Assembly (NCBI GenBank): GCA_029820995.1
Contig: JALGUG010000048.1
Coordinates: forward strand, 1 to 32,340
Reading direction: 5' to 3'
From: Candidatus Zipacnadia bacterium
Lineage (GTDB): Bacteria > Armatimonadota > Zipacnadia > JALGUG01
DNA length: 32,340 nucleotides
How positions within the stretch are numbered: position 1 is the first letter of the stretch; each line of letters starts with the position of its first letter. Shown here piece after piece: positions 4,852 to 32,340 of the stretch. A program made the position numbers and the translations under genes. Below the pieces are notes generated by a model that worked only from the letters and a program-made list of their open reading frames with translations, did no database searches and was not told where the DNA came from.

Positions 4852-4964
4852 GCCAAGGCCCAGGGCAGGGCGACCGTGAGCAGGTTGCCCGTACGGCGGG
4901 ATCCCACGGGTGAAGTCGCTCCCACACGATAGGAACACGGCAAGGGCGGGGCAGAGGAGAAGCC

Positions 4965-6113
4965 ATGGGGCTGGAGGGCCGCAGCCTGGTCTCCGTCTGG
5001 GACCTGACCTGTGGCGAGATTCGGGGACTATTGGAGCAGGCGGGCGAGTTCGCCGCGGCAGGCGGTGGGGGTCTGGGCGCCGGGCGGATTTTGGCCACGC
5101 TCTTTTACGAGCCGAGCACGCGCACGCGGTTGAGCTTCGAGTCCGCGATGCTGCGCCTGGGCGGGCAGACGCTGGGCTTTGCGGAGGCGGCCAGCAGCTC
5201 CGTGGCCAAGGGGGAAAGCATCGCGGACACGGTGCGCATGGTGGGAGCCTACAGCGACATTGTCGTGCAGCGGCACCCATGGGAGGGGGCGGCCAAGGTT
5301 GCGGCCGACGCGGCCAGTGTGCCGGTCGTCAATGCCGGCGATGGCGGACACGAGCACCCGACGCAGACTTTGACCGATCTGTTCGCGCTGCAGCGGCGTC
5401 ATGGCCGGCTGGGCGGGCTGACGGTCGGCCTGTGCGGCGACCTGAAGTATGGCCGCACGGTGCACTCGCTGGCGCCGGTGCTGGCGCGATTCGGCTCCCG
5501 ATGCGTGTGCATCGCTCCCCCGGAGTTGGCAATGCCGGAGCGGTTCATGGCCGAAGTGGAGGAGCTGTCGGGCCAGCGGCCGCAGGAGACGGCGGACCTG
5601 GCGGCAGCCCTGCCGGAGTTGGATTGCCTGTACATGACGCGGATCCAGAAGGAGCGCTTCCCCGACAAGTCCGCCTACGAGCGCCTGAAGGGCAGCTACG
5701 TCGTGGACCGGGCTCTGCTGGACCGCGCGCCGGAGCATCTGAGCATACTCCACCCGCTGCCGCGAGTGGACGAGATTGCGCCCGAGGTGGATGCCGACCC
5801 TCGCGCGGCGTACTTTGAGCAGGCCGCCGGAGGGGTCTTCGTGCGAATGGCCCTGATAGCGGCGCTGCTGGGGCTGGTTGACTGGCCTGATGCGTCCGAA
5901 GAGCGGGAACCGGCCCAGATCGCCCGGGAGCAACGGCGGAGAAGACCGCAGGCGGACGTCGGAGCGTGCGACAACTTGAAGTGCGTCACCCACCACGAGC
6001 CCGGCCTGGCTCCCGACTACCTCATTGTCTCCGATGATCCGCCGCTGCTGGTTTGCGAGTACTGCGAATGGGAGAAGCGGCCGCTCCCGCTTTCGTTGGA
6101 GTCGGAAGGCTAG
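4965..6113 (+). CDS. pyrB: Aspartate carbamoyltransferase fused to a PyrI-type zinc domain
   Basis: PyrB condenses carbamoyl phosphate with aspartate, the committed step of pyrimidine synthesis. Residues 1 to about 307 are a complete catalytic chain, with the carbamoyl phosphate loop FYEPSTRTRLSFE (about 47-59), HPTQTLTDL and HPLPRVDEI. Unusually it continues after a charged linker (about 310-334) into CDNLKC...CEYC, i.e. Cys 335, 340, 364 and 367. This C-x4-C...C-x2-C spacing and the VTHHEP context match the zinc domain of the regulatory chain PyrI. The PyrI N-terminal nucleotide-binding domain is absent, so the tail probably mediates assembly rather than CTP/ATP control. ATG 4965 follows AGAGGAGA. 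A 113-base gap with a GC-rich palindrome precedes it. Confidence 0.95.
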   Translation: MGLEGRSLVSVWDLTCGEIRGLLEQAGEFAAAGGGGLGAGRILATLFYEPSTRTRLSFESAMLRLGGQTLGFAEAASSSVAKGESIADTVRMVGAYSDIVVQRHPWEGAAKVAADAASVPVVNAGDGGHEHPTQTLTDLFALQRRHGRLGGLTVGLCGDLKYGRTVHSLAPVLARFGSRCVCIAPPELAMPERFMAEVEELSGQRPQETADLAAALPELDCLYMTRIQKERFPDKSAYERLKGSYVVDRALLDRAPEHLSILHPLPRVDEIAPEVDADPRAAYFEQAAGGVFVRMALIAALLGLVDWPDASEEREPAQIAREQRRRRPQADVGACDNLKCVTHHEPGLAPDYLIVSDDPPLLVCEYCEWEKRPLPLSLESEG

Positions 6114-6118
6114 AGCCG

Positions 6119-6179
6119 CTTTCATGACCCGACGAGCACGCTGGTCGCGCCGGAAGGTGCTCCTACGGGGTTATGAAAG
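6119..6179. repeat. 61-bp imperfect palindrome between pyrB and argG
   Basis: The outer arms CTTTCAT (6119-6125) and ATGAAAG (6173-6179) extend inward through a G-T wobble and ACCC/GGGT pairs. A second stem GAGCAC/GTGCTC (6134-6139, 6157-6162) lies inside. Together they form a long two-part hairpin with no T-run. It could be a small mobile palindromic element or an mRNA structure controlling argG. The terminal GGTTATGAAAG also occurs at about 26606-26616. Confidence 0.55.
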
Positions 6180-6236
6180 GGATTCTGGCGCATACCTGAC
6201 CAAGAGCGCGCCGGCGGCGCGAAGGAGGAGAGCGTA

Positions 6237-7430
6237 GTGACCTACGAACTCGCGAAGTGCGAAAAGGTGGCCCTCGCCTATTCGGGCGGTCTGGACTCAG
6301 CGCTGTGCATCAAGCTGCTGTTTGACCGGTACGGCGCCAAAGAAGTGCATGCGGTGACGGTGAATGTGGGGCTGAGCGAGGAGGAGCTGGAGGAGTGCCG
6401 CGCCAAGGCGGAGCTGCTGGGCGTGCCCTGGTACTTAATTGATGCGGAGCAGGAGTTCGCCGACGACTGGATCGCCAAGGCGATCCGCGCGAACTCCAAC
6501 TATGAGGGCTATCCGGTCTCGACCTCGATGACGCGGCAGCTTATCGCTCAGAAGGTGGCCCTGTGGGCCGTTGAGCACGGCTGCGATGCATTATGCGAGG
6601 GCTCGACCGGCAAGGGCAACGACCAGTACCGGATGCACAATGTGTTCACGATGTTCGCGCCGGACTGCACGGTGATTGTGCCCGTGCGGGACTTCGACTT
6701 CACGCGTGACGAGGAGAAGAAGCTGTCCAAGGAGTACGGGATTCCGTATCGTGAGGGCATTGGTGATGACCGCACCATGTGGTGCCGCTCCATCGGCAGC
6801 GGCGAAGTAGACAACCTGCAGATGCGCATTCCGCAAGAGGATTACATCTGGTACAAGTTTCCGGAGAATGCGCCCGACGAAACGACCAGGATCGAGATCG
6901 AGTTTCGCGAGGGCCTGCCGGTCAAGTGCGACGACCAGGAGGGCATCGCGGCGATCGTCCACTACCTCAACCGCGTGGGCGGCGAGAACGCGATCGGCAA
7001 GATTGACATGTTCGAGGATGGAATGATGTCGCTCAAGTCGCGCGAGGCCTACGAGGCTCCGGCGGCGACGATCATCCTCAAGCTCCACCAGGACCTGGAG
7101 CAGATGTGCCTGACGAAGGAAGAGGTGCAGTTTAAGCCCCTGGTGGACCAAAAGTGGGCCTACTTGGTGTACCACGGAGCATGGTTCCATCCGCTCAAGA
7201 ACAACCTCGACGCGTTCATCGAGCGGTCGCAGTGGGCGGTGAACGGTCGTTACGTCGTCGAGTTGTATAAGGGCAACATTGACATCGTATCACGGGAGTC
7301 GGACTCGACGCTGTTCAGCCGGGACATTCGCTCCCTGGCGACCAAGGGCTTCGACCAGCGGGATTCGGGGCCGGCCGTCAAGATTCACGGGATTCAGTAC
7401 CAGATCCTGGCGCAGAGGGGCCTGCAATGA
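6237..7430 (+). CDS. argG: Argininosuccinate synthase
   Basis: ArgG ligates citrulline and aspartate using ATP to give argininosuccinate, the penultimate arginine step. The 397-residue protein starts AYSGGLDSALCIK, the PP-loop ATP pyrophosphatase motif, and carries the characteristic EGSTGKGNDQYR block near residue 120. The GTG start at 6237 sits behind a strong AAGGAGGAGAG ribosome binding site. Its stop overlaps the argH start by 4 bases (ATGA), indicating translational coupling. Placement within a pyrimidine cluster links the two users of carbamoyl phosphate. Confidence 0.97.
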   Translation: MTYELAKCEKVALAYSGGLDSALCIKLLFDRYGAKEVHAVTVNVGLSEEELEECRAKAELLGVPWYLIDAEQEFADDWIAKAIRANSNYEGYPVSTSMTRQLIAQKVALWAVEHGCDALCEGSTGKGNDQYRMHNVFTMFAPDCTVIVPVRDFDFTRDEEKKLSKEYGIPYREGIGDDRTMWCRSIGSGEVDNLQMRIPQEDYIWYKFPENAPDETTRIEIEFREGLPVKCDDQEGIAAIVHYLNRVGGENAIGKIDMFEDGMMSLKSREAYEAPAATIILKLHQDLEQMCLTKEEVQFKPLVDQKWAYLVYHGAWFHPLKNNLDAFIERSQWAVNGRYVVELYKGNIDIVSRESDSTLFSRDIRSLATKGFDQRDSGPAVKIHGIQYQILAQRGLQ

Positions 7431-8929
7431 AGCAGCTCTGGGGCGGACGATTCGACAGCGACCCCGCGTCGCTGGCGATGAACTATGCCGAGTCGATCGA
7501 GGCGGACAGCCGGATGGTCGCCGAGGACATTTGGGGCAGCGAGGCGCACGCGATTATGCTGGCGCGCCAGGAGATCATCACCGAGGAAGAGCTGCGGCAG
7601 ATCCTCAAGTATCTGGAGCTGGCGAGAGAGGAATTTGCGCAGGGCACGCGGACGCTCAAGCGCGAGCTTGAGGACGTGCATATGAATGTGGAGACCGTGC
7701 TGATCGAGGGCGCGGGCAAGGAGTACGGCGGCAAGCTGCACACGGCGCGGTCGCGGAACGATCAGGTGATCGTGGACAGCAAGCTTCATCTGCGCACCAG
7801 GCTGCTGGATGTGGCCGATGCGCTGGCGCAACTGCGGGGCGTTCTGTTGGAGCGGGCCACGAATCATACCGAAGATGTGATGCCCGGCTATACCCATACT
7901 CAGCACGCTCAGCCGATCACTGTGGGCTTTTGGCTGAGCGCCTATGCGTCAGCTCTGGCCCGCGATCACGAGCGTCTGCAGGGAGCCTTCAATCGAGCCA
8001 ATACCTCGCCCCTAGGCGCTTGTGCGCTGGCGGGAACGTCCTTTCCTACGGACCGGCGGTTGGTGGCCAAGCTGCTGGGCTTCGACCGCGTGCACGAGCA
8101 CGCCCTGGACCTGATCGGCGCCCGGGACTTCGTGGCGGAGGCCCTCAGCGCGATGGCGATCCTGATGTCCACGCTGTCGAAGTTGGCCCAGGAGACGGTG
8201 CTGTACTCGACATACGAGTTCCGCATGGTGGAGCTGGATGATGCCTTTGCGTTCGGCAGCTCAATCATGCCGCAAAAGAAGAATGCCTGCCTCGCGGAGT
8301 TGGCCCGGGCCCGGGCCGGGAACGTGTTCGGGCGCCTGATGCAGGTGCTGACCATGATCAAGGGCACACCGATCGGCTACAACCGCGATGTCCAAGAGGA
8401 CAAGCCGCCGCTGTGGGAGGCGCTGGACTGCACCGAGGCGACCGTGCTGGTGCTGGCCGGCGTGGTCTCGACGCTCGAGTTGAAGCTCGAGCGGATGCGG
8501 GAATTGGCGGGGGCCAACTTCTCCACGGCCACCGAACTGGCGAACTGTCTGGTGCGGGACCATGGTCGGCCCTTCCGCGAGAGCCATGAAATCGTGGGCA
8601 ACATCGTGGGGCAGCTCTGCAAAGAGGGCAAGAACTTCAACGATGTAGAGCGCACGGGCGAGCTGCTGCGCGAGCACGGCATTGAACTGGCGCGCGATGA
8701 GTTGGCCGCGGTGGTTGATCCGGAGCGGGTGGTCCGGGCGCAGCGCAGCCTGGGTTCGACCAATCCCCGCGAAGTCCAACGGATGATTGCCGACCTCTCA
8801 CGAACCCTGGATCGTGACGCCAATTGGTCTGCCGCCGCGCGTCAGCGCATTGCGGCGGCGCAAACTCACACGCGGGAGATTGTGCAGAGAATCATTGAGG
8901 GCGGCTCTCTGGCCGAGTGCCGCCTTTGA
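7427..8929 (+). CDS. argH: Argininosuccinate lyase
   Basis: ArgH splits argininosuccinate into arginine and fumarate. The 500-residue protein opens with KQLWGGRF and contains the lyase landmarks HTARSRNDQV, MPGYTHTQHAQP (catalytic-base region) and the fumarase-superfamily signature GSSIMPQKKN, where the usual following Pro-Asp is Ala-Cys. It is about 40 residues longer than the E. coli protein, mostly at the C-terminal end. It overlaps argG by 4 bases and is followed after 22 bases by pyrK. Confidence 0.97.
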   Translation: MKQLWGGRFDSDPASLAMNYAESIEADSRMVAEDIWGSEAHAIMLARQEIITEEELRQILKYLELAREEFAQGTRTLKRELEDVHMNVETVLIEGAGKEYGGKLHTARSRNDQVIVDSKLHLRTRLLDVADALAQLRGVLLERATNHTEDVMPGYTHTQHAQPITVGFWLSAYASALARDHERLQGAFNRANTSPLGACALAGTSFPTDRRLVAKLLGFDRVHEHALDLIGARDFVAEALSAMAILMSTLSKLAQETVLYSTYEFRMVELDDAFAFGSSIMPQKKNACLAELARARAGNVFGRLMQVLTMIKGTPIGYNRDVQEDKPPLWEALDCTEATVLVLAGVVSTLELKLERMRELAGANFSTATELANCLVRDHGRPFRESHEIVGNIVGQLCKEGKNFNDVERTGELLREHGIELARDELAAVVDPERVVRAQRSLGSTNPREVQRMIADLSRTLDRDANWSAAARQRIAAAQTHTREIVQRIIEGGSLAECRL

Positions 8930-8951
8930 AAGACGCAGCGGAAGGCGCAAG

Positions 8952-9618
8952 GTGTTTCACACCGCCGTCCGGATCCTAGAGCACAAGGGCGTGGCGCCGG
9001 GCTATGTGAGGATGGGCCTGGACGCGCCCGAAGTGGCAAGAACGATTGCGCCGCTGCTGTGCCGCCCCTTCAGCGTGGCCGCGGCTGACCCGGCAGACGG
9101 GACGATTGACCTGATCTTCCGGACAGTGGGACGGGGGACCGCTCTTCTGGCGGCCATGGAGCCGGGCCAGAGGCTGGAACTCACGGGCCCACTGGGCCAC
9201 GGCTTCGATTTGCCGCCGCGGCGGAGGACCGTCCGAGGCGTTCATCGGGGCCCAAACGGCGGACCTGCTCCTGGGCATTGAGGAGTTCGAGCGAGACACA
9301 GACAAACTTCACCCCGCCACGGACGACGGCTCTGCCGGGCACCACGGCTTGCCGACGGAGCTGCTGAAGGACCGCCTGGCGCGGGACACGGAGTGCGAGG
9401 TGTATGCCTGCGGGCCTCACGAGCTCTTGCGAGCGGTCGCCGACCTGACGGCCGAGCACAACGTGCCTTGCCAGGTTTGTCTGGAGAGCCAAATGGGCTG
9501 CGGATTGGGCGCCTGCCTGGGATGCGTCATTGCGGCACCGGCCGAGGGCGACGGCATCGAGTACGTTCGAGTGTGCACCGAGGGTCCAGTCTTCGATGCG
9601 CGACGAGTCGTGTGGTAA
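8952..9618 (+). pseudogene. pyrK: Dihydroorotate dehydrogenase electron-transfer subunit, frameshifted with an apparent internal deletion
   Basis: PyrK carries FAD and a [2Fe-2S] cluster and passes electrons from PyrD to NAD+. The sequence from GTG 8952 (GGAAGG upstream) reads VFHTAVRILEHKGVAPGYVR through RPFSVAA to LTGPLGHGFDLPP, the FAD-binding half, and stops at 9281. The C-terminal half is in another frame, from about 9235: AFIGAQTADLLLGIEEF, YACGPHELLRAVADL, then the iron-sulfur segment CGLGACLGC and VCTEGPVFDA, ending at 9618. Compared with PyrK proteins, the glycine-rich VGGGxGxxPL segment between the halves (about 25-30 residues) is missing, and the frame changes at the same place (about 9228-9238). 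This implies a deletion of 3n+2 bases. Either the gene is broken or the assembly lost bases; all flanking motifs are well preserved. Confidence 0.8.
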
Positions 9619-9623
9619 CGACC

Positions 9624-10568
9624 ATGTGTGCGTCCCATTCTGACCTCGACCTCACGGCTCAACTGGGCCCGCTGCGACTGCCCAATCCGGTCATCGCGGC
9701 CTCCGGTACGTTCGGCTATGGCGCGGAGTATGAGGACTTCGTGGATCCTTCGGCGCTTGGCGCCGTCTGCGTCAAAGGCATCACGCTGGAGCCGCGTCCG
9801 GGGAATCCGCCGCCCCGGATCTGCGAGACCCCGGCGGGAATGCTGAATGCCATTGGACTGCAAAACCCAGGGGTCGAGGTCTTTCTGGAAGAGAAGCTGC
9901 CGCCGTTGCGGGATGGGGGGGCGCGGGTCATCGTCAACATCAACGGCACCACACAGGAGGAGTATGCGGTGCTGGCTGAACGCGTATCGGGGGCGGAGGG
10001 TGTGGTGGCGCTTGAACTGAACGCTTCGTGCCCCAATGTCCGGGAGGGTGGGATGCACTTCGGCACCCGGGGGGACCTGCTGGGGGCGCTGACGGCCCGG
10101 GTGCGGCAGGCGACCGACCTGCCCTTGATCGTGAAGCTCTCGCCGAATGTGACCGACATCGTGGGGCTGTCTCGCGTGGCGCTCCAGGCCGGCGCGGACG
10201 TGCTGAGCCTGATCAACACGCTGCTGGGGATGGCGGTGAACCCGCAGACGCGGCGCCCGCGCCTGGCAAGCCTAACAGGCGGGCTGTCGGGGCCGGCGAT
10301 CAAGCCCGTGGCGGTTCGCATGGTGTACGAGGTGGCGCACGCTCTCAAGGCGCCGATCATCGGCATGGGCGGCATCATGACCGGGCTAGACGCCGTGGAG
10401 TTCCTTCTCGCCGGGGCGAGCGCGGTCGGAGTCGGAACGGCGAGCTTCGTGAACCCTCGGGCTTGCCTGAACGTGTTGGAGGACTTGCGCAGTTACCTGC
10501 AGCAGCAGAACGTGGCCGGCGTGAGCGAGCTGGTCGGCGGGATGCGGCTCCCCGGTGATGCGGACTGA
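9624..10568 (+). CDS. pyrD: Dihydroorotate dehydrogenase, catalytic subunit (class 1B)
   Basis: PyrD oxidises dihydroorotate to orotate with FMN. The 314-residue protein matches the class 1B catalytic chain that normally pairs with PyrK: PNPVIAASGTFGYG at the N-terminus, the active-site block ELNASCPNVREGG (the Cys as catalytic base is typical of class 1), VKLSPNVTDI, and the FMN phosphate region GMGGIMTGLDAVEFLLAGAS. ATG 9624 lies five bases after the pyrK stop, so the two are co-transcribed. Because pyrK looks disrupted here, the physiological electron acceptor of this PyrD is uncertain. Confidence 0.96.
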   Translation: MCASHSDLDLTAQLGPLRLPNPVIAASGTFGYGAEYEDFVDPSALGAVCVKGITLEPRPGNPPPRICETPAGMLNAIGLQNPGVEVFLEEKLPPLRDGGARVIVNINGTTQEEYAVLAERVSGAEGVVALELNASCPNVREGGMHFGTRGDLLGALTARVRQATDLPLIVKLSPNVTDIVGLSRVALQAGADVLSLINTLLGMAVNPQTRRPRLASLTGGLSGPAIKPVAVRMVYEVAHALKAPIIGMGGIMTGLDAVEFLLAGASAVGVGTASFVNPRACLNVLEDLRSYLQQQNVAGVSELVGGMRLPGDAD

Positions 10569-10583
10569 GCTGGGGAGCCGAAG

Positions 10584-10862
10584 GTGGTGCGGCAGATGAC
10601 GCTCGAACAGCGTCTCAGGGACCTGCAGGCGCGTCTGGGCAAGGCAATCCTGGTGCGCGGCGTGCACGCGCCGGAGCCTGAGTTCCGGGGCCGGATCATT
10701 GAGCGACCGCGCCATATTGTGATCGAGTACCGGGACGACAATCCGGGATACTTCTGGGATCAGGACCTGCTGGCGGAATTGGTGGAATATCTCGAACAGG
10801 GCCGCGTCAATGTGACGCTGCTGGAGAACGACTTGGAGGACGAAGGGGACTGGGAGATCTGA
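10584..10862 (+). CDS. Small conserved-looking protein downstream of pyrD, function unknown
   Basis: I do not recognise this 92-residue acidic protein. It begins with an amphipathic segment (TLEQRLRDLQARLG), continues with an alternating beta-type stretch (GRIIERPRHIVIEYRD) and ends with the acidic tail ENDLEDEGDWEI. It has no signal peptide or membrane segment. The GTG at 10584 is placed by GGGGAG at 10573-10578; an in-frame ATG at 10596 is the alternative. It lies 15 bases after pyrD and is probably the last gene of the pyrimidine operon. Confidence 0.75.
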   Translation: MVRQMTLEQRLRDLQARLGKAILVRGVHAPEPEFRGRIIERPRHIVIEYRDDNPGYFWDQDLLAELVEYLEQGRVNVTLLENDLEDEGDWEI

Positions 10863-10940
10863 GGTGTTGTCGAGCAGGAGTATGCTTAACGTGGTTCGTG
10901 CCTCCCGGCTGCTTGCCAGGGGTGCGGGTAGCGACCGTGG

Positions 10941-10969
10941 TTGACACTGTAGCATCGCTCTGCTATGAT
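10941..10969 (+). promoter_or_regulatory. Extended -10 consensus promoter for the small ORF and tRNA-Met
   Basis: TTGACA (10941-10946), a 17-bp spacer, and TATGAT (10964-10969), with TGC immediately before the -10 giving an extended -10 element. The start is predicted near 10974-10978, so the Shine-Dalgarno GGAGG (10976-10980) lies at the very 5' end of the message. Its strength suits a tRNA operon. Confidence 0.8.
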
Positions 10970-10989
10970 GATCATGGAGGTCAGCCGGC

Positions 10990-11160
10990 ATGAGGAAGAT
11001 TGATTATGCTGCGCTTGAGGCGCTGTCGACGGAGAAGCTGGAGGCCCTCGAAGAGCAGCTCGCGATGAACTTGAAGCGTGAAGAGCAAGAGCGGCGGCGT
11101 AAGCTGGAGGAGCAGGCACGGAAATCGCGCAAGAAGCGCAAGATGCAGAGGTCCAAGTAG
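10990..11160 (+). CDS. 56-residue basic coiled-coil protein upstream of tRNA-Met
   Basis: A short ORF of 56 codons (ATG 10990, TAG 11158-11160) directly behind a strong promoter and GGAGG at optimal spacing. The product is highly charged: an acidic, leucine-spaced first half (LEALSTEKLEALEEQLAMNL) that looks like a coiled coil, then a basic C-terminus (KSRKKRKMQRSK) suited to RNA or ribosome contact. I cannot assign a family. The promoter, ribosome binding site and heptad-like pattern argue it is translated. It shares its transcript with the tRNA 22 bases downstream. Confidence 0.6.
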   Translation: MRKIDYAALEALSTEKLEALEEQLAMNLKREEQERRRKLEEQARKSRKKRKMQRSK

Positions 11161-11182
11161 CCGCTGAGGCGGCGGATCTTGT

Positions 11183-11259
11183 GGCGGCGTAGCTCAGATG
11201 GTGAGAGCGTGCGGTTCATACCCGCAGTGTCGGCGGTTCGAGTCCGCCCGCCGCTACCA
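11183..11259 (+). tRNA. tRNA-Met (CAU), elongator type
   Basis: A 77-base cloverleaf with the 3' CCA encoded. The acceptor stem is GGCGGCG/CGCCGCT with G1-U72, the D arm GCTC/GAGC, anticodon stem TGCGG/CCGCA with loop TTCATAC (anticodon CAT), variable loop GTGTC, T arm GGCGG/CCGCC and discriminator A. It lacks the three consecutive G-C pairs in the anticodon stem and the C1-A72 mismatch of initiator tRNA, so elongator Met is preferred. A tRNA-Ile with lysidine-modified CAU cannot be fully excluded. Confidence 0.92.
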
Positions 11260-11307
11260 CTCGCGCGGACAGCCCTGCCCATCTCGGGTTTTCCCGGCGG
11301 CGGGGCG

Positions 11308-11337
11308 ACGACTCTTGCGTATGCGAGGGTCGTTTTT
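11308..11337 (+). terminator. Intrinsic terminator after tRNA-Met
   Basis: An 11-bp stem (ACGACTCTTGC against GCGAGGGTCGT, including two G-T pairs) with loop GTAT, followed immediately by a run of five T at 11333-11337. It ends the small ORF/tRNA transcript and separates it from accB. Confidence 0.8.
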
Positions 11338-11373
11338 GCTGAGGCAGCAGGCCTGGCTGCGTAGGTGTCCCCA

Positions 11374-11808
11374 ATGAAGTCGGACACGCCCGACGACATC
11401 CGCGCCTTGGCGCGGTTCATGCAGGAGCACGATCTGGAGGAAGCGGAGCTCCGGCAGAACGGCGTTCGGATCCATCTGCGCAGGGGGAACGCGAGCCCGG
11501 AGCGGAGCGCGGAGGTCCGCGCGGCCGAGGGGACGGTCGCGGGGGACGAGATCCCGCCGGGAACGGTGGCGCTGTTGAGCCCGATGACCGGGATCTTCTA
11601 CCGTTCGCCGGCACCCGACCGGCCGCCGTTCGTTGTGGAGGGCGATATCGCCAACGAGGGGGACACGGTCGGGCTAATTGAAGCGATGAAGGTGTTTAAC
11701 GAGATCCTCGCCGAGGTGTCAGGCCGCGTGGTGAAGATCTTGGTCGCCAACGAAGCACATGTCGAGGAGAACGAGCCGTTGATGTATCTGGAGCCGATTG
11801 AACCGTGA
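11374..11808 (+). CDS. accB: Biotin carboxyl carrier protein of acetyl-CoA carboxylase
   Basis: AccB carries the biotin that shuttles CO2 between biotin carboxylase and carboxyltransferase in malonyl-CoA synthesis. The 144-residue protein has the BCCP layout: an N-terminal helix (DDIRALARFMQEHDLEEAEL), a variable linker, and a C-terminal biotinyl domain from about residue 65 with LSPMTGIFY and the biotinylation site EAMKVFNEI (Lys about 106). ATG 11374 is used; an in-frame GTG at 11365 is possible and no strong Shine-Dalgarno decides between them. The usual partner accC is not adjacent; hom and thrC follow instead. Confidence 0.93.
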   Translation: MKSDTPDDIRALARFMQEHDLEEAELRQNGVRIHLRRGNASPERSAEVRAAEGTVAGDEIPPGTVALLSPMTGIFYRSPAPDRPPFVVEGDIANEGDTVGLIEAMKVFNEILAEVSGRVVKILVANEAHVEENEPLMYLEPIEP

Positions 11809-11841
11809 AGGAGAGGTCGCCGGGAAGCGGCGAGTTGGGAT

Positions 11842-13131
11842 ATGAGCGTGGGTCAGGTTGGCGTGGGCATCGTAGGAGCGGGCATTGTCGGCTGCGGGGC
11901 GTACCGCTGTCTGACGACTAATCCCCACGCCATTGAGCGTCGAGCAGGCGGACCTGTTCGCGTGGTACAAGTGGCCGATATTGATTGGGCGCGCGAACGG
12001 GAGGTAGATATTCCCGCCGAGCTGCGGACGGAAGACGCCTTCGCGCTGACGCGCAACCCCGAGGTACACGTTGTAATCGAGGCGGTCGGAGGCACGACGG
12101 TTGCCCGCGACGTGATCCGGTCGGCCATCGAGCACGGCAAGAGTGTGGTCACGCCGAATAAGGAACTGATCGCTCGGCACGGCGCTGAGCTCCTGGACGC
12201 AGCCCGTGAGGCCGAGGTTGACCTGGAGTTCGAGGGCAGTGTGGGCGGCGTGATCCCGATCGTGCGGTCATTGAAGGAAAGCCTGGTCGCGACCCAGATC
12301 AACGCGCTGTACGGCATTCTGAACGGCACGACAAACTACATCCTCACGCGCATGAGCCGGGAGGAAGTGCCGTTCGAGGAGGCGCTCGCAGAAGCGCAGG
12401 CCAAGGGGTACGCCGAACAGGACCCCAGCGCCGATATTGAAGGCCACGACGCGGCGAACAAGATCGCGATCCTGGCGGCAATCGCCTTTGGGCGGCGGGT
12501 GACCATTGATGAGGCGTACCGCGAGGGGATCTCCAAGATTGCGCCGGCGGACATCCGCTATGCGCGCGATCTGGGCTACGTAATCAAGCTGCTCGCCATC
12601 GCCAAGCGCGGCGACAACCAGATCGAGCTGCGCGTGCATCCGGCGCTGATCAGGCTGGACCATCCACTGGCGGCCGTGAACGATGTCTACAATGCCGTGT
12701 TTGTGGAGGGCGTGGAGTCGGGTAACGTGATGCTGTACGGGCGGGGAGCCGGCTCACTGCCGACCGGCACGGCTGTGGCCGGCGATGTGGTTGACTGCGC
12801 CCGCAATATTTTCAGGGGGAGCCCGGGCCGAGTGCCCTGCACGTGCCAGGGCGAGGCGGTGGTCCGGCCGATCGAGGAGATCGAAGCACCGAACTACATT
12901 CGGATGCGGGTAAAGGATCGCCCCGGCGTAATGGGCGCCATTGCGACGCTGTTCGGTGCGGAGCAGGTGAGTCTGGAGTCCGTGGTGCAAGAGGGGAGCT
13001 TTGGGGAGGAAGCCGAGATCGTATGGGTCACGCACCGCGTGAAGGAGTCGGCTCTGCGCGCGGCGTTGCGCCGCATCAGCGAGCTGGATGTCGTTGTTCG
13101 GGTCGAGAACTGCATTCGAGCTGAGGCCTAG
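11842..13131 (+). CDS. hom: Homoserine dehydrogenase with C-terminal ACT domain
   Basis: Hom reduces aspartate semialdehyde to homoserine for threonine and methionine. The 429-residue protein has an N-terminal NAD(P) fold (GAGIVG at about 12-17), the catalytic domain with NGTTNYILTRM and the signature GYAEQDPSADIEGHDAANK, and a C-terminal ACT domain from about residue 350 (YIRMRVKDRPGVMGAIATLF) that usually mediates threonine feedback inhibition. thrC starts 3 bases after the stop, forming an operon. No separate thrB lies between them. Confidence 0.96.
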   Translation: MSVGQVGVGIVGAGIVGCGAYRCLTTNPHAIERRAGGPVRVVQVADIDWAREREVDIPAELRTEDAFALTRNPEVHVVIEAVGGTTVARDVIRSAIEHGKSVVTPNKELIARHGAELLDAAREAEVDLEFEGSVGGVIPIVRSLKESLVATQINALYGILNGTTNYILTRMSREEVPFEEALAEAQAKGYAEQDPSADIEGHDAANKIAILAAIAFGRRVTIDEAYREGISKIAPADIRYARDLGYVIKLLAIAKRGDNQIELRVHPALIRLDHPLAAVNDVYNAVFVEGVESGNVMLYGRGAGSLPTGTAVAGDVVDCARNIFRGSPGRVPCTCQGEAVVRPIEEIEAPNYIRMRVKDRPGVMGAIATLFGAEQVSLESVVQEGSFGEEAEIVWVTHRVKESALRAALRRISELDVVVRVENCIRAEA

Positions 13132-26620: not shown

Positions 26621-29600
26621 CTACTCGATTCGCACTACCTCGTCCGGGTCCGGGCCGTCTTCACCCTCGACCCATTCGTCTAGCAGCTCTTCCAGTTCGC
26701 GACGAGTGAGCATCCGCCCGGCAAGCCTCTGGTGTAGCTCGGCCAGACTGCGACGCGGCACGGGTCGCTCGGCGAGCGCCCGGCGAATGTGCGTCGCCGC
26801 CCCCTCGCTGAGCAGCAGCAGGAGTTCGCGTCCACTGGGCGTCTCGGGAAGAGCAACGAGGCGCCTGAGGCGCGCGCGGACGTCGCCCGGCTCGGCCAAG
26901 CTGTCAGCGTATTTGAGCAGCAGCTCCTGGCGCTGCGGCGCTCGCAGTGCCCGAGCGTACTCAGCCAGGCCCTGCTCGACCATCGCAGCCAGCTCGGCGG
27001 GAGGCACTCGCTCGGGACCCTCCGCGCTGCGCAGGCCACACCGGGGGCAGATCGGGGTCTCCAGCAGGACTCTCTCCAGGTCCGTCTCCGGACATCGCTT
27101 AGCGAGCTCCGCCTCCACAGCCTCGGCCACGCGAGCAGCCGAATGCCGGACCTCGATGCCGGTCTCGGCCAGCGCCTCCAGAGCGCGAAAGGCGGGCGAG
27201 GCCTTGATCTGCTCATACCCTTCGAACTGTGCGCCATGGTGACAGCGGGCGTGCCACGCGAGATACTGCCGGCGGTAGGCGGTCAGGAAGCTTTGGGCCA
27301 GGCGGCGAGCCGTGGCGGCCTCGGTGACCGTTCGCTCTCCCTGGGCCACGAAGTCAAGGAACTTCTGCCGCGCCTTGTCCAGGGCCGCCGGCAGGCCCTC
27401 GGCGAGCCGTTGGTCTGAAGCATAGCGGTAAGCGGCCACGATCTCGTCGGCGCGGTGCTGGAGGAAGTCGCTCAAGCGGTCCAAATTGCGCAGCAAGAGC
27501 TTAATTCGGGGGGCCCCCGCCCGGACGTCGAGGTAGGGAGCCGCTTTCTCCAGAAAGGCGGCCAGACCGCTGGCCGTCGTCTTGTGCTCGTCGGCGTGGC
27601 TGTACAGGCGCTCTAATTGCGACAACAGATCGCGCGATTCCGACCAGGTGTCTGCGGTCTGGTCGAGTGCCTCCCACAACTCCTCGAGCCGATGGCGTAA
27701 CTCGGCCACCCTTTGGAGCTGTGTGCGCTTCTGCTCGCGTAGCGCGGTCCAGATACTCTCCTGGGTGGGCGCGTCGGGGTGGAGCACGGGCATGTCCAGG
27801 AACCAGCGGGAGGCGCGACTGAGCAGTTGCCACTGCTCGTACGACAACAACGGGGCCCGCGCCACGTACTGGACGTGGGCAGCCAGCGGCGTAGGAATCT
27901 CCGGGAGGACCAGCGGCTGCTGCCGGGCGTCCAGCGGCATCAGGTGCCCGAGACGCAGCAGGGCCGCCACGATCAGCTCAAACTGATCGGGCAGCAGGCC
28001 GTACTCGGATTTGGCGAAGTACTGGGCCAGGTCAGCACAGGAGATCGGCCGGCCTCGCTGAGTCAGGGGGCCGGGATCGCGCTGGCGGATGCGGTCGAGC
28101 ACCGCACCTACGACGCCGCCTTCTGTGGCGTGGAGCAGGTATGACCCACCGCGACCAGTGGCCAACCCGAGGGGAACCATCACGGCCTCGATGAGCTGCG
28201 CCAGCGGCGAGGTGACCTCCACCTGTACCTCAGCCGGCCGGACAAACTCCCGGACCAGCAGGTCTACACCATCCTCGTCGGTCAAGGGGCGCCGGGGGGC
28301 GATGGCCTGGAACAGAGGGTAGACCTCCTGCAACATCGTCTCGGCCAGGCGTCGCAGGGCTGCCTCCCAGTCGCCCCGGAGGGCCGTCAAGTCGTCTGTG
28401 GAGAGCAGCGGGCCCGAGGCGCCCAGCACCTCGCCCTCGTAGTAGGCCGCCTCGACCACCGCCCGAGCCGCGCGTTCGCGCGCCGCTTGCTCCTCTTGCA
28501 GTCGCGTCAGCAGCGGGCGCGACCGGGGGTCCTCCCGGAGCGCGGGCTCTTCAAGCAGTAGCCGGTACGAGGCGTAGTCCTTCAGGGCATCCAGCTCCGC
28601 CGGGGCAAGCTGACGGGGCACCCACGCGGCCAGGCCGGCGGACCACCGCGTCGGCGGCAGCCCGGCACACAGCTCGCGCCAGCGACGCGCTTGAGGTGCC
28701 TGACGACCGAGCCTGCCGATGTACAGGCGTGCCGTCTGGAGCGCCTCCACATCCGAGATGGCGGCGACAGCACCCGTTAGCTCCGCAGCATCCAACCCCG
28801 TCAGGTCCGCGAGGCGCACGCCGATGACCCGCGGGGAGTTGCACCAGTCCACTTCGGCCAGCGCTTCGGCCCGAAACCGGGCCAGCGGGAATGACGGCTC
28901 GGTACAGGCGGCAATCGCTTCGTCCACAATCAGCGGATCGTCGTCGGACATCACGGATTTCTGGGCGTGAATGCGTCGCCGAACCTGTTCCGCGACATGC
29001 GAGGCGACGTCCACCACGTAGACGTCGTCTTCCGGCCGGTCGGCGCGGTGCAAGACGTCCAGATAGCTTCCCTGCAGTCGGAACGTCTCCAGCACGCGCC
29101 GCGCGCGGGCGACCGGGTCCTGGTCATCGGCCTCCCCCTGCCGATAGGTTGCCTCGGCCAGCAGCCGGACCGGAACATCAATCCCGGCCAGGCGCAAAAC
29201 GATGAGCGCCTCGACCAGGCGCAGGCCGAAGGCCGCCTCCTCGGCCAGGAGGCGTTCCACGTGTTTGGTGTAGTAGTCGTGGACCTGCGTCACGTACGCC
29301 GCCGTTTCACTGCGTCGGGCCATTTCCACCGCGAAATGCTGAAACAGCACGTCCAGGCCCACAAGTTGGCGGGCATCTTGATCCAGCAATCCCGGCAAGC
29401 CGTCCTCGGGCCGCCCGCCGACTCTCGTGAGCACAAAATCCACCAGGCTGCGGGTTTGAGAGAAGACACGGCTCGCCGAGGCCTCCAGACACGCCAGGCT
29501 CAGAGGATGCAGCGGATATGATTCAGCCAGCGACTCGGGCCGGAGCTCGGTCTCGGGGAAGGCCGCGCCATAGACTTCCAGCGTCTCGGCCACGGCTTGC

Positions 29601-30649
29601 TGCAGTGCCTCCTGGGACACGGGGCGCACGATCCGCTCGCGCAGTACGCGCCGCATTTGGTGGATGGACAGAGACAGGCGGGTGTTGTACCGGTCGCGAA
29701 TTTCATTGAGCGCGACGCTCTCGATCTCGCCGATGCTCTCCAGCTCCTGCTGCAGCGTCCCCACGACCCACAGGGGAGCGATCTTGCTGCGCTGACCCAG
29801 GAAGTGCAGGAAGGCGCAGTCGTTGCGCGCGGCCTTCGCCTCCATCGCCGCCAGGAACATGGCCAGATCATCGAGCAGCCAGACCACTCCGCCGAAATTG
29901 TGCTGTCGGATCACCTCCAGCAGTCGGGCCAGCCGCTCGATGCGGGATTGCCGGAAGTCCAGCGGATAGCCCAGCTCGCGCACCAGCTTGCGGCCCGCCC
30001 GCACCGCCTGCTCCGGCGAGGAATCCCGCAGCGTCTCCCACGTCGTCCCGGCCCCGAAGTCCTGCTCCAGGAGCGCGGCAAGCGGCTCGGCATAACGCGG
30101 CGCCACATGGCGGTCAATCAGCTCCAGAGCGTACGATTCCTCGGAGAGCGGCACATTCAAGCCATACTTGGGCCGTCGCAGCTCCTCCTCGGTCAGGTCG
30201 AAGACAATGTCCTCCAGATGTTCCCGCGATCCGCGATGCTCATCCAAGGGCACTGGGACGACTACGAGCGGCGGTACGGCGCGAAGCAGGCCGCGCACGT
30301 GTTGGTACTCGGGGTGGGCCGGCAGGAAGTAGTCCCAGGCGGCGTCGTACTCCGCCAGCAGTGCGATGACGCTCAGGAAATGGGTTTTGCCGGCGCCGTG
30401 AGGGCCCTGGATCAGAAAGCCGGTGCCCCGTGCCTCCTGCCCGGCCAGACTGCTGAGCACGGCATCCAGAGTAGCCTTGTTGCCCTCCGGCGCCACGACA
30501 TATTGAGCCAACAGGTCGTGCAGCGCCGCAGCAGCTCCAGCCAGCGGCGCCTGGGGGCTGCGGTCGAGCTCTCGGCGCAGAGCCTCCAACTGCGCCAGCG
30601 AGACCACCGTCGGCACTTGCGCTAGTTGGATAACCTCGCCGATCCTCAT
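26621..30649 (-). CDS. Large P-loop ATPase, DUF6079/PglY/BrxC-like (BREX/Pgl defence type)
   Basis: A 1342-residue protein. The N-terminus (MRIGEVIQLAQVPTVVSL, then YVVAPEGNKATLDAVL) precedes Walker A GPHGAGKT at 82-89 and Walker B VVWLLDD at 255-261. The pattern of a short recognition stretch, then ATP-binding QGPHGAGKTHF, then a very long helical region, matches DUF6079/PglY and BrxC ATPases of BREX and Pgl phage-defence systems. A CPRCG zinc-finger half lies in the C-terminal third, and the C-terminus ends in an acidic helix. ATG 30649 has AGAGG at a good distance; GTG 30685 would add 12 residues. It is downstream of the small partner gene, with a 57-base gap. No methyltransferase, PglZ or Lon protease is nearby. 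The family call is from motifs and length, not from a database search. Confidence 0.75.
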   Translation of the reverse strand: MRIGEVIQLAQVPTVVSLAQLEALRRELDRSPQAPLAGAAAALHDLLAQYVVAPEGNKATLDAVLSSLAGQEARGTGFLIQGPHGAGKTHFLSVIALLAEYDAAWDYFLPAHPEYQHVRGLLRAVPPLVVVPVPLDEHRGSREHLEDIVFDLTEEELRRPKYGLNVPLSEESYALELIDRHVAPRYAEPLAALLEQDFGAGTTWETLRDSSPEQAVRAGRKLVRELGYPLDFRQSRIERLARLLEVIRQHNFGGVVWLLDDLAMFLAAMEAKAARNDCAFLHFLGQRSKIAPLWVVGTLQQELESIGEIESVALNEIRDRYNTRLSLSIHQMRRVLRERIVRPVSQEALQQAVAETLEVYGAAFPETELRPESLAESYPLHPLSLACLEASASRVFSQTRSLVDFVLTRVGGRPEDGLPGLLDQDARQLVGLDVLFQHFAVEMARRSETAAYVTQVHDYYTKHVERLLAEEAAFGLRLVEALIVLRLAGIDVPVRLLAEATYRQGEADDQDPVARARRVLETFRLQGSYLDVLHRADRPEDDVYVVDVASHVAEQVRRRIHAQKSVMSDDDPLIVDEAIAACTEPSFPLARFRAEALAEVDWCNSPRVIGVRLADLTGLDAAELTGAVAAISDVEALQTARLYIGRLGRQAPQARRWRELCAGLPPTRWSAGLAAWVPRQLAPAELDALKDYASYRLLLEEPALREDPRSRPLLTRLQEEQAARERAARAVVEAAYYEGEVLGASGPLLSTDDLTALRGDWEAALRRLAETMLQEVYPLFQAIAPRRPLTDEDGVDLLVREFVRPAEVQVEVTSPLAQLIEAVMVPLGLATGRGGSYLLHATEGGVVGAVLDRIRQRDPGPLTQRGRPISCADLAQYFAKSEYGLLPDQFELIVAALLRLGHLMPLDARQQPLVLPEIPTPLAAHVQYVARAPLLSYEQWQLLSRASRWFLDMPVLHPDAPTQESIWTALREQKRTQLQRVAELRHRLEELWEALDQTADTWSESRDLLSQLERLYSHADEHKTTASGLAAFLEKAAPYLDVRAGAPRIKLLLRNLDRLSDFLQHRADEIVAAYRYASDQRLAEGLPAALDKARQKFLDFVAQGERTVTEAATARRLAQSFLTAYRRQYLAWHARCHHGAQFEGYEQIKASPAFRALEALAETGIEVRHSAARVAEAVEAELAKRCPETDLERVLLETPICPRCGLRSAEGPERVPPAELAAMVEQGLAEYARALRAPQRQELLLKYADSLAEPGDVRARLRRLVALPETPSGRELLLLLSEGAATHIRRALAERPVPRRSLAELHQRLAGRMLTRRELEELLDEWVEGEDGPDPDEVVRIE

Positions 30650-30706
30650 CCGTTCAACCTCTTGCGGGGCCCTTCGGGTGTCCACTTGCGGGCGCTTCGG
30701 GCCGCG

Positions 30707-31558
30707 CTACAATTGCCCCAGGATCACAGTCACGGCCTCCGTGGTGTCGCGGCAGGCCAGCTCGACGAAGCCGCCGGCCGCATCCGGAGTGGCGACCAGG
30801 CCGTGTTCTCGGCACTCGCGCAGCAGCAGTTGGAGCCGCATTCGCGACAGCAGGAACAGTCGTGCCAGGTCGCCATTCGCCAGGCGGTCTGCGGGCCAGC
30901 GGCGGTCCGAGCGCGGGCAGGCGGCGTAGAGGCAATAGGCCAGCGCCGGCCATTCCACGGTCCGGCCCGCCGGGAAGTAGCCCAGGCATCGCACGCCTTG
31001 ACTGACAACCCAGGTCGCATCGAGCGCTTCGCCCGCCCGGAGCGTGCGCAAGGCCAGTTGCGTAGAGGCCCGACGTCGCAGCCCCCATTGCCGCTGCGCA
31101 TAGCGCGCCAGCGCAGCGTGCGTGACGACCTGATCGGTCTCGAACAGTTGCCCGGACCGCTCGACCGCGAATTGTCGGCGCGTTGTGCCCTTCGGCGCAG
31201 CGTTCAGCACAAAGTACGGGAAGAACACGTCGCCCATGATGGCCAGCAGCAGCGGCTCTCGGCGACTGGTGGCATAGAGAAGCAGGTGCCGGCGGGCCGC
31301 CTCGTCCGGGAGCGCCGACAGCAGCTCGTGCAGCGGCGTTGGGACCAGCTCGCGCTTCGATTCCGGGAATAGCCGTCGCACCACGGCCCAGGCAATGCGC
31401 TCGCGCTGCCGCGGCGTCGCAGTCGCCAGGCGGCCGCGGATCGCGTCCAGAAGCTCCGTCCTAGTCTCAAGCTCCCGGCTCATCCGCACTGCGGCCAGGG
31501 CTATATCCGCCTCCAGCCCCACGGTGATCGCCTTGTGTCGCCGCTCTCGCTGCGCCAT
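30707..31558 (-). CDS. Unknown helical protein, first gene of the BREX-like cassette (tentatively BrxA/DUF1819-like)
   Basis: A 283-residue, mostly helical protein, rich in Arg and Leu. It has no signal peptide or membrane segment. The central part (about 74-180: LHELLSALPDEAARRHLLLYATSRREPLL... through FETDQVVTHAALARYAQRQW and RRRASTQLALRTLRAGEALD) has the layout I associate with BrxA (DUF1819), the small NusB-like DNA-binding partner in BREX loci: a short fold followed by a winged-helix-like segment. This is a pattern judgement with limited confidence. ATG 31558 is chosen because the sequence upstream reads like leader DNA and overlaps the trp promoter region. The ATPase follows after 57 bases, so the pair is one operon. 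Confidence 0.6.
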   Translation of the reverse strand: MAQRERRHKAITVGLEADIALAAVRMSRELETRTELLDAIRGRLATATPRQRERIAWAVVRRLFPESKRELVPTPLHELLSALPDEAARRHLLLYATSRREPLLLAIMGDVFFPYFVLNAAPKGTTRRQFAVERSGQLFETDQVVTHAALARYAQRQWGLRRRASTQLALRTLRAGEALDATWVVSQGVRCLGYFPAGRTVEWPALAYCLYAACPRSDRRWPADRLANGDLARLFLLSRMRLQLLLRECREHGLVATPDAAGGFVELACRDTTEAVTVILGQL

Positions 31559-31635
31559 CGGTCTTTGCGATCGCTCCCAGCCGTGGACAGTCTCCCCAGG
31601 TCCGAGCTGTTGAGCCGAGGTGCGCCAGATTCCCC

Positions 31636-31665
31636 TTGACTCGCGCCCGGCTCGCAGACTATACT
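31636..31665 (+). promoter_or_regulatory. trp operon promoter
   Basis: TTGACT (31636-31641), 18-bp spacer and TATACT (31660-31665): five of six matches at the -35 and at the -10. The predicted start is near 31672, just before the leader-peptide ribosome binding site. It fires away from the divergent minus-strand cassette. Confidence 0.75.
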
Positions 31666-31686
31666 CGCGCGTGTTGGAGGGTCGAG

Positions 31687-31746
31687 ATGTTACCTGCCGT
31701 GTGTTGTGAGTTCTTTGCTTGGCGATGGTGGCGTGGCGCCCCATGA
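31687..31746 (+). CDS. trpL: trp leader peptide
   Basis: A 19-codon ORF with GGAGGG (31676-31681) at ideal spacing before ATG 31687, ending at TGA 31744-31746. It encodes MLPAVCCEFFAWRWWRGAP, with Trp codons at 31720, 31726 and 31729, so three of four consecutive codons from 31720 are Trp. A ribosome starved for charged tRNA-Trp would stall here and alter folding of the downstream leader. The position between the trp promoter and trpE, the codon content and the ribosome binding site together define it as a trp attenuator leader. Confidence 0.85.
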   Translation: MLPAVCCEFFAWRWWRGAP

Positions 31747-31806
31747 GGGGAGCGTCGGCCACCGGTGTTGTGTTCTCTAAGGTAGTTCAGTAACAGATTC
31801 CACCGG
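31727..31806 (+). promoter_or_regulatory. Proposed pause (1:2) and antiterminator (2:3) pairings of the trp attenuator
   Basis: GGTGGC (31727-31732), which overlaps the Trp codons, can pair with GCCACC (31758-31763). The same downstream region (CCGGTG, 31762-31767) can instead pair with CACCGG (31801-31806), which overlaps the 5' arm of the following terminator. A ribosome stalled at the Trp codons would block the first pairing and favour the second. Confidence 0.6.
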
Positions 31807-31847
31807 CCGCAGGCGAGTTCCTCTCAGCCCGCGGCCGTATTGTTTGT
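31804..31847 (+). terminator. trp attenuator terminator hairpin
   Basis: CGGCCGC (31804-31810) pairs with GCGGCCG (31831-31837), with extra inner GGC/GCC pairs, followed by TATTGTTTGT. The 5' arm overlaps the antiterminator pairing, giving mutually exclusive structures. Confidence 0.6.
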
Positions 31848-31860
31848 ATCGTCGTGACGA

Positions 31861-31900
31861 AGCGGCCGCAGGCCCAGAGCCTCCGGCCGCTGTTGTGTTT
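31861..31900 (+). terminator. Second leader hairpin, terminator-like
   Basis: AGCGGCCG (31861-31868) pairs perfectly with CGGCCGCT (31884-31891), with an inner AGGC/GCCT stem and loop CCAGA, followed by GTTGTGTTT. Its 5' arm repeats that of the first hairpin (CGGCCGCAGGC), suggesting a duplicated terminator. Confidence 0.5.
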
Positions 31901-31986
31901 AGGTCGGTATGATGCAGGGATCCACATGCTTCTCGGCGGCTCCTATAGGTTCAAGTACCTTCGACGCTGGAACGGGCTTCTCCTTT

Positions 31987-32004
31987 CGTGCGGCGGCACG
32001 TTTT
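31987..32004 (+). terminator. Third small hairpin plus T-run in the trp leader
   Basis: CGTGC (31987-31991), loop GGCG, GCACG (31996-32000), then TTTT. The stem is short and may not terminate alone. It lies 64 bases before the trpE start. Confidence 0.35.
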
Positions 32005-32067
32005 GTCCGCCGGGCCGGAGAAGGCCGGTCTCGGAGCGAATTGGCATAAGCTAAGAAGGGGGAGACC

Positions 32068-32340
32068 ATGTACACTCCCGACCGAACTCTGTTCCGCGAA
32101 CGCGCCCAACAAGGCAACCTCGTGCCCGTGTACCGCGAGATACTTGCGGACCTCGAGACGCCGGTGTCCGCCTTCTTGAAGATCCGCGGCGGAGCTGAGA
32201 ACGCGTTCCTGCTGGAGAGTGTGGCGGGCGGCGAGAACGTGGCGCGGTTTTCGTACCTGGCGGCGCAGCCGCGCCAGGTCTTTTTCACCAAGGGCCACAC
32301 GGTGACCATCCGCAACGATGAAGCCGAGACGACCCGAGAG
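32068..32340 (+). CDS. trpE: Anthranilate synthase component I, N-terminal fragment
   Basis: The first 91 codons of TrpE, running off the right edge. TrpE with TrpG converts chorismate to anthranilate, the first step of tryptophan synthesis. ATG 32068 is preceded by AAGAAGGGGGAGA. The peptide shows the component I N-terminus: LVPVYREILADLETPVSAFL, then FLLESVAGGENVARFSYLA, in which the LLES motif is the tryptophan-binding site used for feedback inhibition. Expression appears to be controlled by the leader peptide and hairpins at 31687-32004. Confidence 0.95.
   Translation, partial: MYTPDRTLFRERAQQGNLVPVYREILADLETPVSAFLKIRGGAENAFLLESVAGGENVARFSYLAAQPRQVFFTKGHTVTIRNDEAETTRE

What the first reader, a model, noticed from the sequence alone, without database searches (positions are those of the whole stretch)
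26621..31558. Candidate minimal BREX-like two-gene cassette
A helical 283-residue protein and a 1342-residue P-loop ATPase (Walker A GPHGAGKT, Walker B VVWLLDD, C-terminal CPRCG) form the only minus-strand operon here, wedged between the nadC operon and the trp operon. The ATPase resembles DUF6079/PglY/BrxC, and the small protein tentatively resembles BrxA, yet no PglX methylase, PglZ or BrxL/Lon gene is adjacent. A two-gene version without a self/non-self methylase would be a new arrangement: a stand-alone effector, a chromatin-type ATPase or a degenerate defence island.
Basis: inference. Interest (0 to 1): 0.75.

Follow-up and report, generated by a model that had tools for sequence, protein, structure and literature searches.

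The report
Vertically inherited BREX-like ATPase with regulator
The two genes are a distant relative of the phage-defence protein BrxC and a BrxA-like partner, but the big gene is a near-universal, single-copy gene passed down vertically in a whole bacterial class and has lost catalytic residues that BREX defence uses, so it looks more like a chromosomal protein related to a defence part than like a small defence system.

Summary
The pair is real: a 1342-aa DUF6079/BrxC-type ORC-like AAA+ protein (26621-30649, -) preceded by a 283-aa BrxA-like protein (30707-31558, -). The ATPase's nearest solved relative by sequence profile and by fold is BrxC. The host is a MAG of class Candidatus Zipacnadia (Armatimonadota). 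The 'minimal BREX defence cassette' reading fails on distribution: the ATPase is in 41 of 46 Zipacnadia genomes, one copy each, its tree follows RpoB (r = 0.87), it is under purifying selection, and no relative was found on phages, plasmids or viral contigs. PglZ, BrxB, BrxL and a true PglX were not detected in the own genome; real BREX loci are sporadic in the class, and one genome carries both. The BrxA-like gene is in 8 of 46, always directly upstream; the same pair, divergent from trpE as in the window, recurs in another family of the phylum. Zipacnadia keep the ATP-binding lysine, but 32 of 33 have lost the Walker-B glutamate and 31 of 33 the BrxC arginine finger. Best reading: an ATP-gated DNA-binding scaffold plus its brake, inherited as a chromosomal factor. 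Its cellular role is inferred, not shown.

The parts
26621..30649 (-). DUF6079/BrxC-type ORC-like AAA+ protein, 1342 aa from ATG (in-frame GTG at 30685 would give 1354 aa)
   Evidence: Pfam DUF6079 73.7 bits, cut-off 23; PADLOC BrxC 4.9e-14; profile hit to BrxC structures 2.6e-7; Foldseek to BrxC 6.9e-10; 41/46 class genomes
30383..30406 (-). Walker A GPHGAGKT (K100 in the 1354-aa numbering)
   Evidence: lysine conserved in every Zipacnadia and outgroup row that covers it
29867..29887 (-). Walker B VVWLLDD; D273 replaces the catalytic glutamate (BrxC-Aci E269)
   Evidence: D in 31 of 33 Zipacnadia rows, G in 1, E in 1; E in 18 of 19 outgroup rows; mapped through the alignment to 9zn5/9zll
29690..29692 (-). 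R332, equivalent of BrxC-Aci arginine finger R330; kept here but lost in 31 of 33 Zipacnadia rows
27101..27805 (-). C-terminal helical (coiled-coil) arm, aa about 961-1195
   Evidence: long helices in the AF2 model, pLDDT 86 overall
27038..27049 (-). CxxC knuckle (C1213, C1216), with conserved C1198 nearby
   Evidence: conserved in the class and outgroups
30707..31558 (-). BrxA-like helical/HTH protein, 283 aa, directly upstream of the ATPase
   Evidence: Pfam BrxA 0.0016 for the window protein and hits in 8 of 14 relatives, best 4.4e-6; family profile also hits BrxA in BREX loci of the phylum; 8/8 class copies adjacent to the ATPase
31658..31685 (-). candidate promoter of the pair (TCGACC-N16-TATAGT), overlapping a + strand candidate at 31636-31665 facing trpE
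   Evidence: consensus scan only, 3 found vs 0.5 expected in the 6.1-kb region scanned

Best explanation
A vertically inherited BrxC-type ORC-like AAA+ protein with, in this lineage, its BrxA-like regulator. It most likely works as an ATP-gated DNA-binding scaffold: ATP binding (P-loop kept) lets it load on DNA, dimers are held by the C-terminal arm, and the BrxA-like protein releases or limits it, as BrxA does to BrxC. In Zipacnadia the hydrolysis and subunit-contact residues have changed while a class-specific conserved surface appeared, so it is most likely a chromosomal (non-restricting) DNA-associated factor and not a stand-alone phage-restriction system. Shown: homology, fold, distribution, vertical descent, residue changes, pairing. 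Inferred: DNA binding, ATP gating, the brake, the chromosomal role.
For: Homology and fold. One copy in 41/46 class genomes, 19/22 of the good ones. Tree congruent with RpoB: r 0.865, 0 of 2000 permutations as high, 21 of 30 splits shared. dN/dS 0.12-0.34, RpoB 0.06-0.18. Walker-B Glu and Arg finger lost in most, P-loop kept. Class-specific conserved residues (e.g. D243-F244-R245-Q246, R867, R869, D870) where outgroups vary. No PglZ, BrxB or BrxL hit and no PglX over cut-off in the own genome. No relatives in viral contigs, plasmids or phages. Same trpE-divergent pair in G101, family f31. Literature PMC13326643: BrxC binds DNA ATP-dependently without needing hydrolysis; BrxA binds BrxC and lowers its DNA binding; mutants disrupting the R330 (C-C) contact nearly abolish restriction.
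Against: No experiment; host uncultured. The chromosomal function is argued from inheritance and residue changes only; some immune genes are also old and vertical. The window protein itself still has the Arg finger, and Glu-to-Asp can leave slow hydrolysis. PF08665 also missed PglZ in class genomes that carry PglX and BrxL, so its absence is not proof. The genome is a MAG of 95% completeness in 481 contigs.
Confidence: 0.55

Rival explanations
1. A stand-alone, vertically kept immune system: the ATPase (with the BrxA-like protein in some lineages) blocks replication of incoming DNA without a self-marking methylase.
For: The closest characterised relatives are all defence proteins; BREX acts by blocking phage replication (PMC13326643).
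Against: Near-universal, single copy and RpoB-congruent in the class; catalytic Glu and Arg finger lost in most members, and R330 disruption nearly abolishes BREX restriction; no self/non-self discriminator; no BREX-component neighbours in the class loci examined.
Confidence: 0.2
2. The ATPase is the core of a dispersed BREX-like system whose methylase and nuclease lie elsewhere in the genome.
For: Generic methylase domains with weak PglX similarity exist in most class genomes; in family f23 a related ATPase sits beside PglZ, PglX-like and BrxA-like genes.
Against: No PglZ, BrxB or BrxL hit in the own genome, and each is found in few class genomes (PglZ 2, BrxB 2, BrxL 8 of 46); PglX over 100 bits in 4 of 46, best 27 bits in the own genome. 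G002 carries a separate BREX locus as well as this gene.
Confidence: 0.1
3. A decaying relic of a BREX locus with no function left.
For: Partner genes absent; catalytic residues changed; BrxA-like gene missing in most class genomes.
Against: Full-length open frames in most relatives; dN/dS 0.12-0.34; Walker A lysine and CxxC kept; Zipacnadia-specific conserved surface.
Confidence: 0.03

Closest known systems
BrxC/PglY (DUF6079) of BREX systems
   Same: N-terminal ORC-like AAA+ domain, mixed middle region, long helical C-terminal arm; only solved relative by sequence profile and top fold hits 9zll, 9zdx
   Different: Remote (window protein 49 bits against the best PADLOC BrxC model, canonical BrxC in G275 743 bits); separate clade; no PglZ/PglX/BrxB; Glu to Asp in Walker B; vertical single-copy inheritance
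BrxA (PF08849)
   Same: Size, full-length collinear alignment, place directly upstream of the BrxC-type gene, BrxA Pfam hits in 8 of 14 relatives
   Different: Window protein is below the Pfam cut-off (18.6 vs 23 bits) and hits no PADLOC BrxA model
BREX-related BR systems (DUF499) and the HerA/FtsK BRC system with DUF6079 (PMC12839542)
   Same: Use a BrxC-like ATPase; the BRC system also a BrxA-like module
   Different: They carry PglZ or a nuclease, helicase and MTase, or HerA; no methylase, PglZ or BrxB lies next to this pair
ORC/Cdc6 and DnaA initiators
   Same: Next fold hits after BrxC, e.g. 7jpo 1.1e-4, DnaA 2z4r 6.8e-3
   Different: Low TM-scores and no sequence-level match

Membership tests
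BREX system | BrxC-type ATPase present | tested here: met
BREX system | PglZ present | tested here: not met
   no PF08665 hit in the own genome, 2 other class genomes with a hit; sensitivity caveat: also silent in some class genomes with PglX and BrxL
BREX system | PglX/BrxX methylase present | tested here: not met
   own genome best 27 bits against a cut-off of 500, generic MTase motif
BREX system | BrxB present | tested here: not met
   no PF08747 hit in the own genome
BREX system | BrxL or replacing helicase in the operon | tested here: not met
   no TIGR02688 hit in the own genome; no other gene in the operon; replacement helicases elsewhere not searched
BREX system | BrxA-like protein present | tested here: met
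   BrxA-like by family profile, below cut-off for the window protein alone
BREX system | site-specific methylation of the host and phage restriction | not testable with these tools
   needs experiments
BrxC/DUF6079 protein family | curated family score | tested here: met
   PF19557 73.7 bits over cut-off 23; NCBIfam BREX_BrxC 45 bits, under its 400-bit cut-off
BrxC/DUF6079 protein family | active AAA+ site: Walker A Lys, Walker B Glu, Arg finger | tested here: inconclusive
   Lys and Arg finger present in the window protein, Glu replaced by Asp; most class members lack both Glu and Arg
BrxC/DUF6079 protein family | wHTH and alpha+beta domains, coiled-coil C-terminus | tested here: inconclusive
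   model matches BrxC over about 570 alignment columns of solved N-terminal constructs and shows a long helical arm; the later domains could not be compared, since no solved full-length BrxC was among the hits
BrxA family (PF08849) | score over the curated cut-off | tested here: not met
   18.6 vs 23 bits for the window protein; 8 of 14 relatives hit at E<=0.1, best 4.4e-6
BrxA family (PF08849) | tandem HTH/wHTH fold | tested here: inconclusive
   AF2 model pLDDT 49, Foldseek without significant hit

The most novel reading that the evidence does not exclude
The BrxC-type ATPase with its BrxA-like partner is an old chromosomal DNA-binding module of Armatimonadota (a bacterial ORC/Cdc6-like chromosome factor), either domesticated from BREX or representing the housekeeping stock from which BREX drew BrxC and BrxA; in Zipacnadia it became a non-hydrolysing, ATP-locked clamp needed for normal chromosome biology.
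Probability: 0.2. Interest if true: 0.85.

Novelty: new variant of a known kind. Interest (0 to 1): 0.6.

Why it matters
In the literature searched here BrxC is described as a part of multi-gene phage-defence systems, and unassigned hits were discarded in the main survey. A class-wide, vertically inherited BrxC-type protein without BREX partners and with altered catalytic residues suggests that this scaffold has a life outside restriction. It offers a natural separation-of-function series (Glu and Arg kept in G002, Asp and Arg in the window, Asp without Arg in most others) for testing what ATP hydrolysis and subunit contact do in BrxC, and it bears on whether defence ATPases come from, or turn into, chromosomal ORC-like factors.

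Tried and rejected
First profile A2 was too diverse for the genome scan; A3 worked. AF2 of the small protein was poor and its fold search empty. PHROGs gave nothing. Considered and rejected: recent horizontal island (codon usage native, RpoB-congruent tree, no mobile-element relatives); hidden BREX partners in the own genome; relic; unlinked divergent BrxA-like copies in the class genomes that lack it (none found). Rfam found no trp leader RNA family between the pair and trpE. A conserved functional neighbour class-wide was looked for and not found; neighbours change between families. In the family tree the canonical BREX rows have long branches and do not form one clade, so the exact root between BREX BrxC and this clade is not settled.

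Full report
Observation. Both genes are present at the stated coordinates on the minus strand. The ATPase is 1342 aa from the ATG at 30649, the start favoured by homologues, or 1354 aa from a GTG; residue numbers below follow the 1354-aa frame. The small gene is 283 aa. The window is one whole contig (G000:C386). The other genes examined are housekeeping genes on the + strand (carbamoyl-phosphate synthase large chain, aspartate carbamoyltransferase, ArgG, ArgH, PyrD, homoserine dehydrogenase, a PLP enzyme, TilS, FtsH, NadC), and trpE begins at 32068.

What the large protein is. Pfam DUF6079 matches at 73.7 bits (cut-off 23), PADLOC BrxC at 4.9e-14, NCBIfam BrxC only sub-threshold. A profile of 29 relatives finds just two PDB sequences, both Acinetobacter BrxC constructs, E 2.6e-7. 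An AF2 model of residues 44-1241 (pLDDT 86) has BrxC structures as its best fold matches (6.9e-10), then human and yeast ORC chains, archaeal ORC and DnaA. So it is a BrxC-type ORC-like AAA+ protein, but remote from canonical BrxC.

What the small protein is. The window protein scores 18.6 bits against Pfam BrxA (cut-off 23), but 8 of 14 relatives match, best 4.4e-6. A profile of the family also finds BrxA-like proteins inside BREX or BREX-like loci of the phylum (G071 1e-11, G275 2e-5, G002 1e-4 in a small protein set), where G275 is a clear BREX locus by PADLOC (BrxA, BrxB, BrxC). A profile alignment is collinear over the full length though weak. The structure prediction failed. 'BrxA-like' is well supported; formal membership is not met for this sequence alone.

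Host. Named relatives are Candidatus Zipacnadia / WS1 MAGs of Armatimonadota; the genome search calls these genomes the same class as the window's genome.

Distribution. The ATPase profile hits 41 of 46 class genomes, one gene each apart from contig-split copies and one weak extra hit in G002. In the wider phylum strong matches occur in many families and are absent from others. No relative was found in viral contigs, plasmids or phages. Against RpoB, patristic distances correlate at 0.865, no permutation of 2000 came near, 21 of 30 splits are shared, and families f2, f5, f6 and f8 are each one group in the ATPase tree. dN/dS between close pairs is 0.12-0.34 against 0.06-0.18 for RpoB. This is the pattern of a core gene.

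BREX partners. In the own genome there is no hit for PglZ, BrxB or BrxL, and PglX is at best 27 bits, a generic methylase motif. In the class, strong PglX and BrxL hits are sporadic, the usual pattern of a defence system. G002 has a BREX-type locus (BrxC, PglZ, PglX) on another contig and still carries the vertical ATPase. Caveat: the PglZ model was silent in several class genomes that have PglX and BrxL, so absence of PglZ alone is not proof.

The pair. The BrxA-like gene is in 8 of 46 class genomes and in all 8 lies directly upstream of the ATPase on the same strand; the families are f1 (own), f5 and f10. The same pair occurs in family f31 outside the class (G076, G101). In G101 it is divergent from trpE as in the window (trpE 4299-5951 minus, small gene from 6126 plus). 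trpE or trpG lies within the fetched stretch in six of about 61 loci, in five families; a naive binomial gives 2e-5, which ignores shared ancestry, so it is read as evidence for an old location and not for function. Most class members have the ATPase alone, so the partner was probably present early and lost repeatedly; repeated gain is not excluded.

Residues. By alignment to BrxC, D273 sits at the catalytic Walker-B glutamate (E269) and R332 at arginine finger R330. Of 33 Zipacnadia rows, 31 have D, one G and one E at the first site, and 31 of 33 lack the arginine; the Walker A lysine is kept wherever covered. Of 19 outgroup rows, 18 have E and all 19 R. In the tree, G002 (E, R) branches first in the class and the window (D, R) next to G027 before the rest, which suggests stepwise loss, with moderate support. 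In the same proteins, residues such as D243-F244-R245-Q246, R867, R869 and D870 are near-invariant in Zipacnadia and variable outside: this points to a change of function, not decay.

Mechanism. For Acinetobacter BrxC (PMC13326643): DNA binding needs ATP but not hydrolysis; the Walker-B mutant stabilises the ATP-bound N-terminal dimer; a R330 mutant blocks N-terminal self-association; disruption of that contact nearly abolishes restriction; BrxA binds BrxC and lowers its DNA binding. By analogy the pair is an ATP-gated DNA-binding scaffold and its brake, without the methylase and nuclease arms. With near-universal vertical inheritance, a chromosomal role is the most likely reading. That role, the DNA binding and the brake are inferred.

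Known or new. A 2026 survey of BREX diversity (PMC12839542) equates BrxC with DUF6079 and describes it in multi-gene systems, discarding a small unassigned fraction of hits; a search of that paper's text for lone or solitary forms found no such description, and paper searches for lone BrxC or for BREX in Armatimonadota found none. Only open-licence papers were searchable. I rate it a new variant of a known kind.

Noticed in passing
window 4965-6113 (+): Aspartate carbamoyltransferase-type protein with a PyrI_C metal-binding domain match at its C-terminus: catalytic and regulatory-chain parts in one chain.
   Followed up: no
window 11183-11256 (+): The only Rfam gathering-level hit in the window is a tRNA.
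   Followed up: no
window 31559-32067: About 500-nt divergent intergenic stretch between the BrxA-like gene and trpE with overlapping promoter-like sites and terminator-like hairpins on the + strand before trpE; a trp leader was considered but no Rfam family matched.
   Followed up: partly
L199 (G002:C13): BREX-type locus (BrxC, PglZ, PglX) in a Zipacnadia genome that also holds the vertical ATPase.
   Followed up: yes
L056 (G055) 5632-11901: A lineage of the same ATPase clade sits directly beside a PglXI-like methylase, a possible methylase + BrxC-type two-gene arrangement.
   Followed up: partly
L060, L061, L206 (family f23): BREX-like loci with a related ATPase and PglZ, a PglXI-type methylase (L060, L206) and, in L061 (G071), a BrxA-like gene.
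   Followed up: partly
L193 and L205 (G261:C1): In a one-contig genome the ATPase is split between places about 1 Mb apart on opposite strands (3531081-3534203 + and 2537679-2538557 -); rearrangement or assembly effect.
   Followed up: no
L071, L072 (G088, G050, family f15): BrxA-like gene present without any detected ATPase of this clade.
   Followed up: no
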